A stretch of 64,000 nt of DNA from Microbacterium sp. (lineage in GTDB: Bacteria; Actinomycetota; Actinomycetes; Actinomycetales; Microbacteriaceae), in assembly GCA_017306415.1 (NCBI GenBank), contig JAFKIL010000003.1, forward strand, positions 62,001 to 126,000, given 5' to 3'. The notes beneath the pieces are model-generated. The model saw nothing but the letters and a program-made list of their open reading frames with translations. It searched no databases and had not been told where the DNA came from. Both the position numbers and the translations under genes were made by a program. Shown piece by piece: positions 51,684 through 56,200 of this stretch (its first letter is position 1; each line of letters opens with the position of its first letter).

Positions 51684-51712
51684 CGGACGGATGCCGGTAA
51701 GGCATGCGTCCG
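51684..51712. terminator. Hairpin before the surface-protein gene
   Basis: CGGACG-G-ATGC pairs with GCAT-G-CGTCCG (one G/G mismatch) around a 7-base loop. It may be the old terminator of the decayed gene or a leader structure. Confidence 0.4.
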
Positions 51713-51814
51713 TTCGGCAACGTGGAAGTCGAAGGGAGTTGCCACTTCCCTGCACCCGCGCACGACCCTAGACTCACGCTGGACCGGCACCGCCCGTGCC
51801 GGAAGGACACTCGA

Positions 51815-54094
51815 ATGCTCGATGATCGCCCCCGTCGAATCGTGGTCGGACTCGCAGCACTGGCGGCGATCGTCGCCGGCATCTCGATGCCGGCCGCGGC
51901 CCACGCCGCAGCTGCGACGGGGGCCGTACACGGCATCGTCACGGGCGCGCACGGCGAGCCGATCCACGGCTGGGTGACCGTGAGATCCCGCGACTTCCCC
52001 GACTCGGAGGTCGGCTCGGCGATCCTGGGTTCCGACGGATCTTTCGCGGTGACCGGACTTGTCCCCAGCGTCTACGCCATCTCAGTGAGGCCCGACGACG
52101 CGTCATCGCCGAACGGCACGTATCCCGGGCAGTACCTGGGCGGAGTGAAGGATCTCGCAAGTTCGCGAACGGTGACCGTCGCCGCGGGATCGAACGTGGA
52201 CCAGGACGTCCGACTCGTCGCCGGCGTGCACCTCGTCGGCACGCTCAGTGCGGACCCGTCCGCACACGGTGTGAGCCCTGCCGATGCGACCGTCAGGTCG
52301 TTCAACCCGTCGTCATCGAGCCCCGCGGCGACGTGGGATGTCGGTGCCGGCGGATCGGTGACCGTCACCGGAACCACCTACCGCTCAGCGCCCTTCCTGG
52401 CCGGTCACGCCGACAGTGCGACATTCTCAGCGTATCCCGAATGGCTACCGACGAGCGTCTCGTACCCCGCCTCCGCCCCTGGAAGTGATGTCTTCGCCGA
52501 CGTGCACTTCTCGGCGGCCGGATGGATTTCGGGAACCATCACCAAAGACGTCGACACCCCCGGATTCCCGGACGTGTACATCTACGCCGTAGGAGGCTGG
52601 GCCGGAGACCCGCGAAACACCAGCGGATCACCCGATGCCAGCGGCCACTTCGCGATCGGGGGTCTGACGCCCGGGGCCTACACCGTCGAGTTCCCTGCTA
52701 GTCCGAGCGTCGACACCTACACGTCCTTCTGGCCGAACGCCCAGCACTTGTCCGGCGCGCAACCGGTCACCGTCACGCCCGGGACATCGACCGAGATCAC
52801 CGCCGAGCTGCACGTCGGCGCTCGCCTCGACGGCAGCGTGTCGATCATCGGGTGGGACGGATCGCACCGACCCGTCGCCACCAGTGTGGAGATCTACTCC
52901 CGCAATGACGACGGATCCCTGTCCGATCCGATCGGGTGGGGCGTGGGAGACTACACAGGCTCGTGGCATGCGAGCACACTCCTGGCGCCAGGCGACTACG
53001 TCGAGCGGTTCACGCCTGTGAGCGCCGGGGCGGGCACCTTCCCGCCCCAGTTCCTCGGCGGCCTCACCGCCTCCGAGGCCACCACCGTCCACGCGTCACT
53101 CGGCACGACCACCACCGAGCTGGTGCTCAAGCCCGCGGTCTTCTCGTCCACACGGCTGGGCGGCGCCGACCGGTATGCCACGGCGGCCGCCGTGGCGGAC
53201 GCCGTGATCCCGGCCGGTCAACATCCGGCCGTCGTCTATCTCGCAAGCGGTGAGAACTTCGCGGATTCGCTGTCCGCGGGGCCTGCGGCCGCATTCGATC
53301 ACACTGTCGTGCTCACCACCAGGGCAGCCACGCTCCCGGCCTCGACTGCAGCGGAGCTCGCTCGGCTGCATCCATCGGAGGTTCGCATCGTCGGAGGACT
53401 CGGCGCCATCAGCGCATTCGTGGCCGCGCGCGCCGGCGCACTGACCCACGCCAAGGTCACGCGCATCGCCGGCGCGGACCGGTACGAGACCTCCCGCAAA
53501 CTCGCCCAGGCGGTGTTCCCCCTCGATGCCAGCGCCTCCGCGCTCCTCGCCACAGGACGCGACTACCCGGACGCGCTTGCGGCCGGCGGTGTCGCCGCGG
53601 TGACACAGGAGCCGGTGATCCTGATCGATGGTCGCGCTGCGATAGTCGACGCGGCGACCCGGCGGCTCCTCGCTGCGTTGAGTCCGGGCGCCATCCAGCT
53701 CGTCGGCGGGACAGGCGCGATATCGGCCGGCATAGAGGCTTCCTTCAACGGCTACGCGGTCCGCTACGCAGGCGCCGACCGCTACGCAACTGCCACAGCA
53801 CTCAACGACGCGCACTCCTCGTCGTTCGACCCGCAGACGCGAGCCACCGTGGTGAGCGGCGCCACGTTCGCCGACGCCACCGTCGTCGCCCCCCTCGCTC
53901 TTGCCCGCCATACCCCGATCGAGCTCTCCGCACCGACATGCATCCCGGTTGTTACCATGTCCTCGATCATCGCGACAGACGGCCTGGCGCTGACGCTCGT
54001 GGGAGGTCCGGGCGCACTGAATGCCGATGTCGCGAAGGCCCACGCCTGCTCAGGGCCGTACCAGACGGGAATATACGACCCGACCTCGCCCTGA
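51815..54094 (+). CDS. Secreted surface protein with carboxypeptidase-regulatory-like domains and three CWB2 repeats
   Basis: A 759-residue exported protein. Signal peptide ~1-33 (VVGLAALAAIVAGISMPAAA). Residues ~35-440 hold about four beta-rich domains of the carboxypeptidase-regulatory type (GSFAVTGLVPSVYAISV; GHFAIGGLTPGAYTVEF). Residues ~441-759 carry three CWB2 repeats, each with (A/G)GADRY and a FADxL/YPDAL element, for non-covalent wall attachment. GGAAGGA precedes the ATG. Codon use is more relaxed than in neighbours (more A/T at third positions), suggesting accessory or transferred DNA. A decayed paralogue lies upstream. Confidence 0.85.
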   Translation: MLDDRPRRIVVGLAALAAIVAGISMPAAAHAAAATGAVHGIVTGAHGEPIHGWVTVRSRDFPDSEVGSAILGSDGSFAVTGLVPSVYAISVRPDDASSPNGTYPGQYLGGVKDLASSRTVTVAAGSNVDQDVRLVAGVHLVGTLSADPSAHGVSPADATVRSFNPSSSSPAATWDVGAGGSVTVTGTTYRSAPFLAGHADSATFSAYPEWLPTSVSYPASAPGSDVFADVHFSAAGWISGTITKDVDTPGFPDVYIYAVGGWAGDPRNTSGSPDASGHFAIGGLTPGAYTVEFPASPSVDTYTSFWPNAQHLSGAQPVTVTPGTSTEITAELHVGARLDGSVSIIGWDGSHRPVATSVEIYSRNDDGSLSDPIGWGVGDYTGSWHASTLLAPGDYVERFTPVSAGAGTFPPQFLGGLTASEATTVHASLGTTTTELVLKPAVFSSTRLGGADRYATAAAVADAVIPAGQHPAVVYLASGENFADSLSAGPAAAFDHTVVLTTRAATLPASTAAELARLHPSEVRIVGGLGAISAFVAARAGALTHAKVTRIAGADRYETSRKLAQAVFPLDASASALLATGRDYPDALAAGGVAAVTQEPVILIDGRAAIVDAATRRLLAALSPGAIQLVGGTGAISAGIEASFNGYAVRYAGADRYATATALNDAHSSSFDPQTRATVVSGATFADATVVAPLALARHTPIELSAPTCIPVVTMSSIIATDGLALTLVGGPGALNADVAKAHACSGPYQTGIYDPTSP

Positions 54095-54157
54095 GGATCC
54101 GCGCGGGCGCCGTCCTCTCGATCGCTGCCCCCGGAAGGCGACCGGACGCGGTTGTGG

Positions 54158-54163
54158 TAGTTT
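54158..54163 (+). promoter_or_regulatory. Extended -10 of the trp leader
   Basis: TGGTAGTTT: TAGTTT lies 6 bp before the leader-peptide ATG at 54170, with an upstream TGG like an extended -10. Transcription should begin at or beside the ATG, making the leader peptide leaderless. Confidence 0.5.
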
Positions 54164-54169
54164 CGCCCC

Positions 54170-54205
54170 ATGATCGCGAACCGCACCTGGTGGCACACCC
54201 GCTGA
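54170..54205 (+). CDS. trpL: trp operon leader peptide
   Basis: An 11-codon frame reading MIANRTWWHTR and ending in TGA, with two adjacent Trp codons (54188-54193). It precedes an anthranilate synthase gene and a T-tailed hairpin. This is the arrangement of a tryptophan attenuator: ribosome stalling at the Trp codons when charged tRNA-Trp is short would prevent the terminator from forming. Confidence 0.8.
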   Translation: MIANRTWWHTR

Positions 54206-54222
54206 GCGGTGTGTTCGCGATC
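54172..54222 (+). promoter_or_regulatory. trp attenuator stem across the leader peptide
   Basis: GATCGCGAAC (54172-54181, inside the leader ORF) and GTTCGCGATC (54213-54222) form a perfect 10-bp inverted repeat enclosing the Trp codons and the leader stop; CACACC/GGTGTG can form an inner stem. This is the expected 1:2 type structure whose state depends on the ribosome position. Confidence 0.7.
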
Positions 54223-54229
54223 CGACGAC

Positions 54230-54255
54230 AGACCGCCCGCGTGGCGGTCTTTGTC
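54230..54255 (+). terminator. trp attenuator terminator
   Basis: AGACCGCC (54230-54237) pairs with GGCGGTCT (54243-54250) around CGCGT and is followed by TTGTC, giving a T-rich end, unusual in this GC-rich genome. It lies 25 bp after the leader stop and 37 bp before the anthranilate synthase gene. Confidence 0.75.
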
Positions 54256-54286
54256 ATGAGGCCGCCCGACCGATGAAAGGCCGGCG

Positions 54287-56200
54287 ATGACACCGCCCTC
54301 TCCCTCCTCTGCCGCGCTGGCGGACGTCCTCGACGCCCATGTCCCGTTCGCCCTCATCGCACGGGATCCCGGCACGGTCGAAGTCCTGACCGGTGAGACG
54401 GTCGACGTGGACCTCCTCGCGGACATCCCGCTGGCGGATGCCGCGGGCACCGCCCGGGAGGTGCTCGCACTGGTGCCGTTCCGCCAGGTGACCGAGCGCG
54501 GGTTCGAGTGCCACGACGATCACGCGCCCCTGCGCTGCCTCGTCGTCGACGCGCATGCCACCCTCCCCCGCGACGAAGTGATCGCCGCACTGCCGGCAGC
54601 ACCGGTCGGACTCCGCGGGGCCGGGTTCGACGTCGCCGACGAGGAGTACGCCGAGACCGTCCGGACCGTGATCGCCGACGAGATCGGACGCGGCGAGGGC
54701 GCGAACTTCGTCATCCGCCGCGACTTCACCGCCGACGTGGACGGCGACGCGATCACCGCGGCGCTGACCTGGTTCCGCGCACTCCTCGAGCACGAGCGCG
54801 GGGCGTACTGGACGTTCCTGGTCTCGACACCCGGGCACATCGCGGTCGGCGCCAGCCCCGAGGCCCACGTCAGCGCGCGCGACGGCGTCGTGACGATGAA
54901 TCCGATCTCCGGCACGTTCCGCCACCCCGCCGGAGGTGCCACCGTCGAGACCCTGACCACGTTCCTCGAGTCGACCAAGGAGACCGAGGAGCTGTTCATG
55001 GTCGTCGACGAGGAGCTCAAGATGATGAGCGCCGTCTGCTCGGACGGCGGACGGATCACGGGTCCGCACCTCAAGGAGATGTCGCGACTCACGCACACCG
55101 AGTACGTGCTGCGCGGGCGGAGCCGGCTCGACCCGCGCGACATCCTGCGGGAGACCATGTTCGCGCCGACGGTCACCGGGTCGCCCATGCAGAACGCGTG
55201 CACCGTCATCACGCGTCACGAGCGAACGCCGCGCGGGTACTACTCCGGAGTCGCTGCGCTCTTCACGCCATCCGCGGGCGGCGAACCCGGCGCGCCGACG
55301 CACGATCTCGATGCCCCGATCCTCATCCGGACGGCCTACCTCGTCGACGGCCGGCTCCGCGTCCCGGTCGGCGCAACCCTCGTGCGGCACTCCGACCCCG
55401 ACGGCGAGGTGAGCGAGACGCACGGGAAGGCCGCCGGCGTGCTCGGGGCCATCGGCGCCGTCCCGCGCGACCGCGACGCCGAGGCTGCCGCGGATCCGGA
55501 TGCGCCCGCGGCGGCACGCCGTCCGCTCGCGGAGGATCCCGGGATCTCCGCGCTGCTCGCGTCGCGCAACGGGCGTCTCGCGCAGTTCTGGCTGAACCCG
55601 CAGGAGCCCGCCGGGCACGGACCGTTCGCCGGACGCAGCGCTCTGGTGGTCGATGCGGAGGACAGATTCACGACCATGCTCGCCCATCAGCTCCGCCACC
55701 TGGGGCTGGACGCGGCCATCGTGCCCTGGAACGCGGTCACCGACGCCCAGCTCGACGCCGCCGAGCTCGTCGTGGCGGGGCCCGGCCCGGGCGACCCCGC
55801 GGACGAGACCTCGCCGCGGATGCGGCGCATGCGCGAGGTCGTCGGCCGCCGGCGGGCGAGCGGACGTCCGCTGCTGGCCGTCTGCCTCAGCAACCAGATC
55901 CTCGCCGGCTCGCTCGGGATCGGTCTCGGCCCGCTCGCACGCCCGCACCAGGGGCTGCAGAAGATCGTCGACGTGTTCGGCGAGGATGCATCCATCGGCT
56001 TCTACAACACGTTCACGGCGCGCGTCGCGCCAGGCACGACCCGCGTGGGAGTGGCCGAGGTCGCCGCGGACCCGGTGTCCGGTGACGTCTACGCGCTGCG
56101 CGGTCCCGGCTTCGCGTCGGTGCAGGGTCACCTCGAGTCGATCCTGTCGCGCGACGGCATGACGACCCTGGAGCGCCTCGTCGGACACGCGCTGGCGTGA
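54287..56200 (+). CDS. Fused anthranilate synthase (TrpE-TrpG, PhzE-like)
   Basis: A 637-residue fusion. Residues ~1-430 form the chorismate-binding TrpE-like part (PISGTFRHPAGG, DEELKMMSAVCSDGG, LTHTEYVLRGR, GSPMQNACTVI, GYYSGVAALF). Residues ~445-637 form the glutamine amidotransferase, with the nucleophile in LLAVCLSNQIL (~531). Sequence alone resembles PhzE of phenazine synthesis, but the trp attenuator upstream argues for anthranilate, i.e. tryptophan synthesis. No other phz or trp genes are near. AAAGG lies 7 bp before the ATG. Confidence 0.85.
   Translation: MTPPSPSSAALADVLDAHVPFALIARDPGTVEVLTGETVDVDLLADIPLADAAGTAREVLALVPFRQVTERGFECHDDHAPLRCLVVDAHATLPRDEVIAALPAAPVGLRGAGFDVADEEYAETVRTVIADEIGRGEGANFVIRRDFTADVDGDAITAALTWFRALLEHERGAYWTFLVSTPGHIAVGASPEAHVSARDGVVTMNPISGTFRHPAGGATVETLTTFLESTKETEELFMVVDEELKMMSAVCSDGGRITGPHLKEMSRLTHTEYVLRGRSRLDPRDILRETMFAPTVTGSPMQNACTVITRHERTPRGYYSGVAALFTPSAGGEPGAPTHDLDAPILIRTAYLVDGRLRVPVGATLVRHSDPDGEVSETHGKAAGVLGAIGAVPRDRDAEAAADPDAPAAARRPLAEDPGISALLASRNGRLAQFWLNPQEPAGHGPFAGRSALVVDAEDRFTTMLAHQLRHLGLDAAIVPWNAVTDAQLDAAELVVAGPGPGDPADETSPRMRRMREVVGRRRASGRPLLAVCLSNQILAGSLGIGLGPLARPHQGLQKIVDVFGEDASIGFYNTFTARVAPGTTRVGVAEVAADPVSGDVYALRGPGFASVQGHLESILSRDGMTTLERLVGHALA

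What the first reader, a model, noticed from the sequence alone, without database searches (positions are those of the whole stretch)
54158..54255. Complete tryptophan attenuator in front of a fused anthranilate synthase
Seen: TAGTTT 6 bp before an 11-codon ORF with tandem Trp codons (MIANRTWWHTR), a perfect 10-bp inverted repeat enclosing those codons, then an 8-bp hairpin with a T-rich tail 37 bp before a TrpE-TrpG fusion gene. Known: ribosome-mediated attenuation controls trp genes in several bacteria. Inference: the leader is itself leaderless, so the ribosome loads at the transcript 5' end, an unusual start for attenuation.
Basis: partly seen in the sequence, partly recalled or inferred. 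Interest (0 to 1): 0.72.

Follow-up and report, generated by a model that had tools for sequence, protein, structure and literature searches.

The report
Leaderless tryptophan attenuator in Microbacterium
A short tryptophan-sensing leader gene, which probably starts at the very first base of its transcript, appears to switch on the enzyme that begins tryptophan synthesis when tryptophan runs short; the mechanism is known from related bacteria, and here it seems to guard the only such enzyme the genome has.

Summary
The window is from a Microbacterium genome. An 11-codon leader ORF (MIANRTWWHTR) follows a TGTGgTAGTTT extended -10 by 6 nt; a 1:2 hairpin, a competing 2:3 helix and a 3:4 terminator precede a fused, PhzE-like TrpE-TrpG gene. 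The same layout lies upstream of the same gene in 112 of 114 loci surveyed (107 distinct; the two misses are cut by contig ends), in Microbacterium and ten other named genera, against 0 of 2240 shuffles. The Trp-to-strand-2 spacing is nearly constant (11-12 nt in 101 of 107). Ribosome-mediated attenuation is well supported, though without expression data. That a leaderless start is unusual is not supported: Streptomyces lividans trpL1 and Sinorhizobium meliloti trpL are reported leaderless. Beyond the finding: none of 35 genomes of the genus has a canonical trpE above cut-off, so this is probably the sole anthranilate synthase; in a tree the solved PhzE falls in a clade of copies without the leader, the window protein among copies with it. 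The leader is not universal in this gene family: 12 of 39 hand-picked regions have it. New member of a known kind.

The parts
54153..54163 (+). extended -10 promoter TGTGGTAGTTT (hexamer TAGTTT 54158-54163)
   Evidence: among 107 distinct relatives TGn precedes the hexamer in 88, the conserved letters are TGTG-n-TAnnTT, and no other block within 50 nt upstream is comparably conserved. TA...T itself was a selection criterion in that set, where TANNNT was not required, it was found in 33 of 33.
54170..54170 (+). predicted transcription start = A of the leader ATG (leaderless)
   Evidence: inference from the spacing between hexamer and start codon (6 nt in 66 and 7 nt in 46 of 112, where 5 to 8 nt was allowed); none of six Shine-Dalgarno-like words upstream of 33 of 33 leaders
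54170..54205 (+). leader peptide ORF MIANRTWWHTR*
   Evidence: 11 codons in 81 of 107 distinct relatives
54188..54193 (+). tandem Trp (regulatory) codons, codons 7-8
   Evidence: WW was a criterion of the survey, with a shuffled control of 0 of 2240
54172..54187 (+). strand 1 of the 1:2 protector hairpin (172-181, plus 184-187)
   Evidence: pair counts
54206..54222 (+). strand 2: pairs with strand 1 (208-211, 213-222) or with strand 3 (206-210 with 232-236; 212-214 with 228-230)
54228..54237 (+). strand 3 (antiterminator partner of strand 2, or terminator left arm 230-237)
54243..54257 (+). strand 4: terminator right arm 243-250 and weak T-rich tail
   Evidence: a strict scan finds no terminator here
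54287..56200 (+). fused TrpE-TrpG-type, PhzE-like enzyme (637 aa): chorismate-binding domain plus class-I glutamine amidotransferase
   Evidence: tree

Best explanation
It is a ribosome-mediated transcription attenuator. Transcription starts at or next to the A of the leader ATG from an extended -10 promoter, and a ribosome loads on the 5' end without a Shine-Dalgarno sequence. If charged tRNA-Trp is scarce, the ribosome stalls at codons 7-8. It then covers strand 1, and its leading edge stops just short of strand 2, about 11 nt after the last Trp codon. Strand 2 pairs with strand 3 before strand 4 is made, and transcription runs into the fused gene. If Trp is plentiful, the ribosome reaches the stop codon and covers the start of strand 2, or it leaves and 1:2 forms. 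Strands 3:4 then form the terminator. The fused enzyme is most likely the main or only anthranilate synthase of this genus. Shown: sequence anatomy, conservation, alternative pairings in silico, no canonical trpE above cut-off. Inferred: the start site, the stalling, the termination and the enzyme activity.
For: Anatomy. Layout present in 112 of 114 loci, 107 distinct, against 0 of 2240 shuffles; the two misses, L066 and L098, have 67 and 1 nt of upstream DNA. In one search, without the -10 as a criterion, 33 of the 34 same-genus loci fitted the 11-codon WW pattern and 33 of those 33 had TANNNT 6-7 nt before the ATG (the 34th, L045, has a GTG-start 11-codon leader with the Trp codons one place later). 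In 30 of 30 loci of the unnamed class genomes closest to P0002 a WW or WWW leader follows a hexamer by 6-8 nt under a looser rule. A terminator-like hairpin in 106 of 107. Spacing from the last Trp codon to strand 2: 11 nt in 87, 12 nt in 14, other or no motif in 6 of 107; 11 nt in the 4 Streptomyces-like loci examined. With a ribosome masked at Trp, 2:3 forms in 105 of 106; at the stop codon in 18 of 106, mostly weakly. The 1:2 stem has 27 cells changed on both sides against 12.7 shuffled, 0 of 500. In 3 of 3 genomes where both were examined (G165, G268, G325) one copy has the leader and an extra copy does not. No canonical TrpE over cut-off in 35 of 35 genomes of the genus; TrpD, TrpC, TrpB and TrpA are present. 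Tree.
Against: No expression data. Weak U-tract and no terminator by strict consensus. Rfam Trp_leader matches at only 20.1 bits (gathering 41), and 8 relatives give nothing at gathering. In the window RNA the terminator beats 2:3 at equilibrium even with the ribosome at Trp, so the switch must be kinetic. Without a ribosome 2:3 forms in 30 of 106, 1:2 in 77 of 106, and 3:4 in the full-length RNA in 92 of 106, so the default state may differ between species. Support for 1:2 is partial: 74.9% of cells paired; the 7 pairs with double changes were reached by 90 of 500 shuffles; and sliding the partner by -2 gives nearly the same covariation score (0.148 against 0.149). Outside the survey, G055 of the same order has the fused gene without a leader, and of 39 hand-picked regions only 12 have one.
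Confidence: 0.9

Rival explanations
1. The leader is transcribed from a promoter further upstream and translated in the ordinary way, so it is not leaderless.
For: No start-site data; no -35 box is recognisable.
Against: The only well-conserved block within 50 nt upstream is an extended -10 placed 6-7 nt before the start codon (33 of 33 where it was not required); none of six Shine-Dalgarno-like words in 33 of 33.
Confidence: 0.07
2. The leader controls the gene mainly by Rho or at translation, not by an intrinsic terminator.
For: Weak U-tract and no strict terminator; one relative (L127) has no terminator-like hairpin.
Against: GC-rich hairpins with T-containing tails in 106 of 107 relatives by a loose rule, and strand 2 is complementary to the terminator's left arm.
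Confidence: 0.08
3. The gene is a PhzE-type ADIC synthase of a secondary pathway, and the leader only couples that pathway to Trp.
For: Best solved relative is PhzE, 509 bits; the NCBIfam TrpE models shown are far below cut-off. PMC5958127 (passages seen) states that sequence does not indicate why PhzE stops at ADIC.
Against: No canonical TrpE above cut-off in 35 of 35 genomes of the genus, while the fused gene is in 35 of 35; the Trp pathway is otherwise present; the tree separates it from PhzE.
Confidence: 0.06
4. The main role of the leader RNA or peptide is in trans, as reported for S. meliloti rnTrpL and peTrpL.
For: A leaderless trpL with trans roles exists before trpE(G) in S. meliloti (PMC7298713, passages).
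Against: Peptide letters outside WW vary among relatives, whereas the 2:3 and 3:4 strands and the spacing are kept; trans roles were not tested here.
Confidence: 0.04

Closest known systems
Streptomyces trpL1-trpE attenuator (S. lividans; S. venezuelae attenuator of Lin et al., cited in PMC4833913 and PMC1262725)
   Same: Leaderless Trp leader (MFAHSTRNWWWTAHPAAH) before a monocistronic trpE (PMC8079986, passages).
   Different: Leader of about 18 codons with WWW, and strand 2 inside the ORF; here 11 codons with WW, and strand 2 at and after the stop codon. That the S. lividans trpE is this fused gene is inferred from the leader, not read from the paper.
Sinorhizobium meliloti trpL-trpE(G)
   Same: Leaderless trpL, transcription attenuation, trpE(G) as the regulated gene (PMC7298713, passages).
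   Different: Another phylum; 14-aa leader; the window protein scores 133 bits against a cut-off of 739 for the TrpE-clade3 model (TIGR01815), which I recall as the model of such alphaproteobacterial fusions.
Corynebacterium trp attenuators (Seliverstov et al. 2005, PMC1262725)
   Same: Leader with double or triple Trp codons and alternative hairpins (abstract and passages).
   Different: They precede trp operons; here a single fused gene away from trpCBA.
Polycysteine leaderless attenuators of mycobacteria
   Same: Leaderless short ORF sensing an amino acid (cited in PMC9031893, passages).
   Different: Cys instead of Trp; the review passage speaks of translation of downstream genes. The original paper was not held.
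Rfam RF00513 Trp_leader
   Same: Best Rfam match over the leader.
   Different: 20.1 bits, under the gathering score of 41.

Membership tests
Ribosome-mediated trp attenuator | short ORF with tandem Trp codons upstream of a trp gene | tested here: met
Ribosome-mediated trp attenuator | mutually exclusive 1:2 / 2:3 / 3:4 pairings, with 2:3 when the ribosome is at Trp | tested here: met
   in silico only: (2:3 in 105 of 106 before strand 4 is made; 1:2 in 77 of 106)
Ribosome-mediated trp attenuator | intrinsic terminator before the structural gene | tested here: inconclusive
   hairpin with T-containing tail in 106 of 107 by a loose rule; 0 by a strict scan of the window
Ribosome-mediated trp attenuator | read-through depends on Trp-tRNA | not testable with these tools
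   no expression data
Leaderless leader peptide | transcript 5' end at the leader start codon | tested here: inconclusive
   hexamer 6-7 nt before the start codon (112 of 112, where a hexamer was required; 33 of 33, where it was not); no 5'-end data
Rfam RF00513 Trp_leader | score at or above gathering | tested here: not met
   20.1 of 41 bits
Fused anthranilate synthase (TrpEG) | chorismate-binding plus glutamine amidotransferase domains in one protein | tested here: met
   PF00425 and PF00117 over cut-off
Fused anthranilate synthase (TrpEG) | makes anthranilate | not testable with these tools
   inferred from the tree and from the lack of another TrpE over cut-off
TIGR01815 TrpE-clade3 | score over the curated cut-off | tested here: not met
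   133 of 739 bits
PhzE / ADIC synthase | groups with the solved PhzE 3r74 | tested here: not met
   3r74 falls inside the clade of 12 rows without leaders (100/99), the window protein outside it

The most novel reading that the evidence does not exclude
A leaderless start is the old and constrained design of the attenuator of actinomycete fused anthranilate synthases. Start site, start codon and hairpin strand 1 coincide, so that ribosome loading itself competes with the protector hairpin, and a ruler of about 11 nt from the last Trp codon to strand 2 sets the switch wherever the stop codon lies. In Microbacterium this switch is the only valve into tryptophan, because canonical trpE was lost from the his-trp cluster.
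Probability: 0.4. Interest if true: 0.55.

Novelty: new member of a known kind. Interest (0 to 1): 0.35.

Why it matters
It shows that leaderless Trp attenuation, reported in Streptomyces, extends through Microbacterium and several other actinomycete genera with a near-constant geometry. The presence of the leader may help to separate anthranilate synthases from PhzE-type ADIC synthases, which sequence is said not to do (PMC5958127, passages). It also points to a genus-wide replacement of canonical trpE. These are useful for annotation and testable, but they overturn nothing.

Tried and rejected
Rejected: (1) that the leader is a chance ORF (0 of 2240 shuffles; unique in the genome). (2) Membership of Rfam RF00513. 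(3) That a second trpE makes this one redundant: the own genome has three PF00425 matches. One is closest to PabB (313.1 of 328.4 bits, just below its cut-off), one passes the isochorismate synthase model, and the third is this gene. (4) That leaderless initiation is new for attenuators. (5) That the enzyme is a PhzE.

Led nowhere: comparing the neighbours of a canonical trpE in another genome of the order (L034). The two flanking ORFs gave no NCBIfam match, so the claim that trpE normally lies between hisI and trpC in actinomycetes rests on my own knowledge. The membrane ORF next to trpC in L049 also gave no match. Searches (listings only) showed no paper whose title concerns a Microbacterium trp attenuator; a 2015 paper by Korolev et al. 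on Trp attenuators in Actinobacteria is known to me only as a title in a reference list and may cover this genus.

Limits of counts. The survey required WW and TANNNT, so those features are not independent there; the controls are the shuffles. Its 114 loci are 34 same-genus ones (29 of the 30, and 5) and the 80. L021 (G023) was dropped beforehand because its contig begins inside the leader. Three carriers of the order outside the genus were looked at apart and are not in the 114: G049 has a 13-codon GTG-start leader whose hexamer is CATAGT, G055 has none, and in G048 the contig starts at the gene. One search reported 53 of 80 under a stricter test (11 codons with WW at 7-8). The 112 loci contain 5 duplicates. 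Seven of these 39 are extra copies (L200-L206) and none has a leader; that another copy in the same genome has one was seen only for G165, G268 and G325, while in G401 none of three copies has one. G371 (L187), counted as without, has a decayed leader with one Trp codon left. In one search two of 30 picks (L138, L162) rest on a loose hexamer at an earlier start codon. A2 holds the 65 of 106 leaders with 11 codons and GCGG directly after the stop codon; 50 were distinct. The tree had 20 rows taken from the regions, 20 rows with leaders and, PhzE.

Full report
What is there. The predicted RNA folds far better than shuffled sequence (z -5.3, 0 of 200). The arrangement is unique in the window and in the genome. 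The promoter looks like an extended -10 without a recognisable -35. The T-rich tail is weak, and a strict scan does not accept the terminator.

Whose it is. The genome has 13 contigs and 3.76 Mb. A scan of named genomes with the fused protein returned mainly Microbacterium, at up to 82% identity, and five same-genus loci are identical over promoter and leader to named Microbacterium records.

Conservation. The fused gene is present in 35 of 35 genomes of the genus examined and in 38 of 58 overall. Upstream DNA was surveyed for 114 loci: 34 of the genus and 80 named ones. A leader ORF with WW and a TANNNT hexamer 6 or 7 nt before its start codon was found in 112; the two others (L066, L098) are cut off by the contig end. 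The same rule hit 0 of 2240 dinucleotide shuffles of those regions. When the hexamer was not required, 33 of 34 loci of the genus fitted the 11-codon pattern, and 33 of those 33 had the hexamer at that distance and none of six Shine-Dalgarno-like words. The named genera besides Microbacterium are Brachybacterium, Agromyces, Jiangella, Blastococcus, Embleya, Kutzneria, Kitasatospora, Yinghuangia, Streptacidiphilus and Scrofimicrobium. Of three carriers in the order outside the genus, G049 has a leader with hexamer CATAGT, G055 has none, and G048 cannot be judged.

The switch. A terminator-like hairpin lies downstream in 106 of 107 distinct sequences. Strand 2 begins at the stop codon as (A)GGCGGT in most Microbacterium and is complementary to the terminator's left arm ACCGCC(T). 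In two Kutzneria (L121, L129) both sides differ (GGCGGCC with GGCCGTC) and still pair. The distance from the last Trp codon to strand 2 is 11 nt in 87 and 12 nt in 14 of 107. In the four Streptomyces-like loci checked it is also 11 nt, although their leader runs on past that point. Taking a ribosome as masking 14 nt upstream to 15 nt downstream of the first P-site base (my assumption), and folding only up to strand 3, 2:3 forms in 105 of 106 with the ribosome at Trp, in 18 of 106 at the stop codon, and in 30 of 106 with none; 1:2 forms in 77 of 106 with none, and 3:4 in 92 of 106 in the full-length unmasked RNA. In the full-length window RNA the terminator is the more stable structure even with the ribosome at Trp, so antitermination must be kinetic. 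The 1:2 stem shows more double changes than shuffled pairs (27 cells against 12.7, 0 of 500), but only 74.9% of cells pair, pairs with a change on both sides are not unusual (90 of 500), and a slide by -2 columns gives a similar covariation score. The protector hairpin is thus likely in part of the genus and not universal.

The gene. The protein has the chorismate-binding and glutamine amidotransferase domains and is closest among solved structures to the ADIC synthase PhzE. The NCBIfam TrpE models shown are far below cut-off. In 35 of 35 genomes of the genus no match to trpE_most reaches its cut-off (best 291.8 of 517.7 bits; three of the genomes are under 90% complete), whereas 15 of the 23 other genomes of the order do. 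Of the three others with the fused gene, one (G049) has both. In the own genome the two other chorismate-binding proteins look like PabB and isochorismate synthase. TrpD, TrpC, TrpB and TrpA are present. Between hisI and the trpC-trpB-trpA-lgt run lie a CWB2-domain protein and a membrane protein, with no trpE; that trpE usually lies there is from my own knowledge. The fused enzyme is therefore probably the only anthranilate synthase.

Leader and family tree. The gene is in 145 of 394 genomes drawn from the class (28 of 137 genera). The 30 loci given by that search, all closest to the query P0002 and all of one family by their handles, have a WW or WWW leader in 30 of 30. Of 39 further upstream regions picked by hand, 12 have the leader; none of 10 from family f35 (first or only copies), none of 7 extra copies, and 2 of 8 from family f45 do. 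In three genomes (G165, G268, G325) one copy has the leader and an extra copy does not. In a tree of 40 proteins plus PhzE, 12 rows without leader and PhzE form one clade (100/99). All other rows have the leader except G100 and G371, the latter with a decayed one. The label needs 3 changes against 11.7 in shuffles (0 of 500). The split at the base of the tree is weakly supported (71/45), so whether the leader is ancestral is open.

What is known. S. lividans has eight leader peptides found by RNA-seq; trpL1 before trpE is leaderless and seems to have a Rho-independent terminator (PMC8079986, passages). Actinobacterial trp attenuators were predicted in 2005 (PMC1262725, abstract and passages), with experimental support cited for C. 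glutamicum and S. venezuelae (PMC4833913, passages). In S. meliloti the attenuator RNA before trpE(G) starts with the trpL ATG (PMC7298713, passages). A study of the fused anthranilate synthase of S. venezuelae was seen as a title in reference lists only. The present case is a new member of this known kind, with a compact leader and a notable genomic setting.

Noticed in passing
51704-54094: A gene for a protein with CWB2 cell-wall-binding domains (PF04122) lies between ispG and the attenuator in the window; within the 1.5-2 kb flanks held, no other of 110 loci shows it, while 78 of 110 show ispG near the leader.
   Followed up: partly
L049:4937-6940: Another CWB2 protein (40% identity to the one in the window over its match) sits between hisI and trpC, where I would expect trpE.
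   Followed up: partly
L187 (G371): A decayed leader: a -10-like hexamer and similar sequence, but TGGTGG has become TGGCGG, leaving one Trp codon (beside its relative L188).
   Followed up: partly
L170, L171, L174, L207 (family f45): The fused gene has no Trp leader and its own start codon follows a -10-like hexamer by 6-7 nt, as if the structural gene itself were leaderless (sequences).
   Followed up: no
L041 (G055): The fused gene without a Trp leader in a genome that also lacks canonical TrpE over cut-off: regulation there is unexplained.
   Followed up: no
L031 (G000:C1:456978-457733): The PabB-like protein scores just below its cut-off (313.1 of 328.4 bits); its role was not settled.
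   Followed up: no
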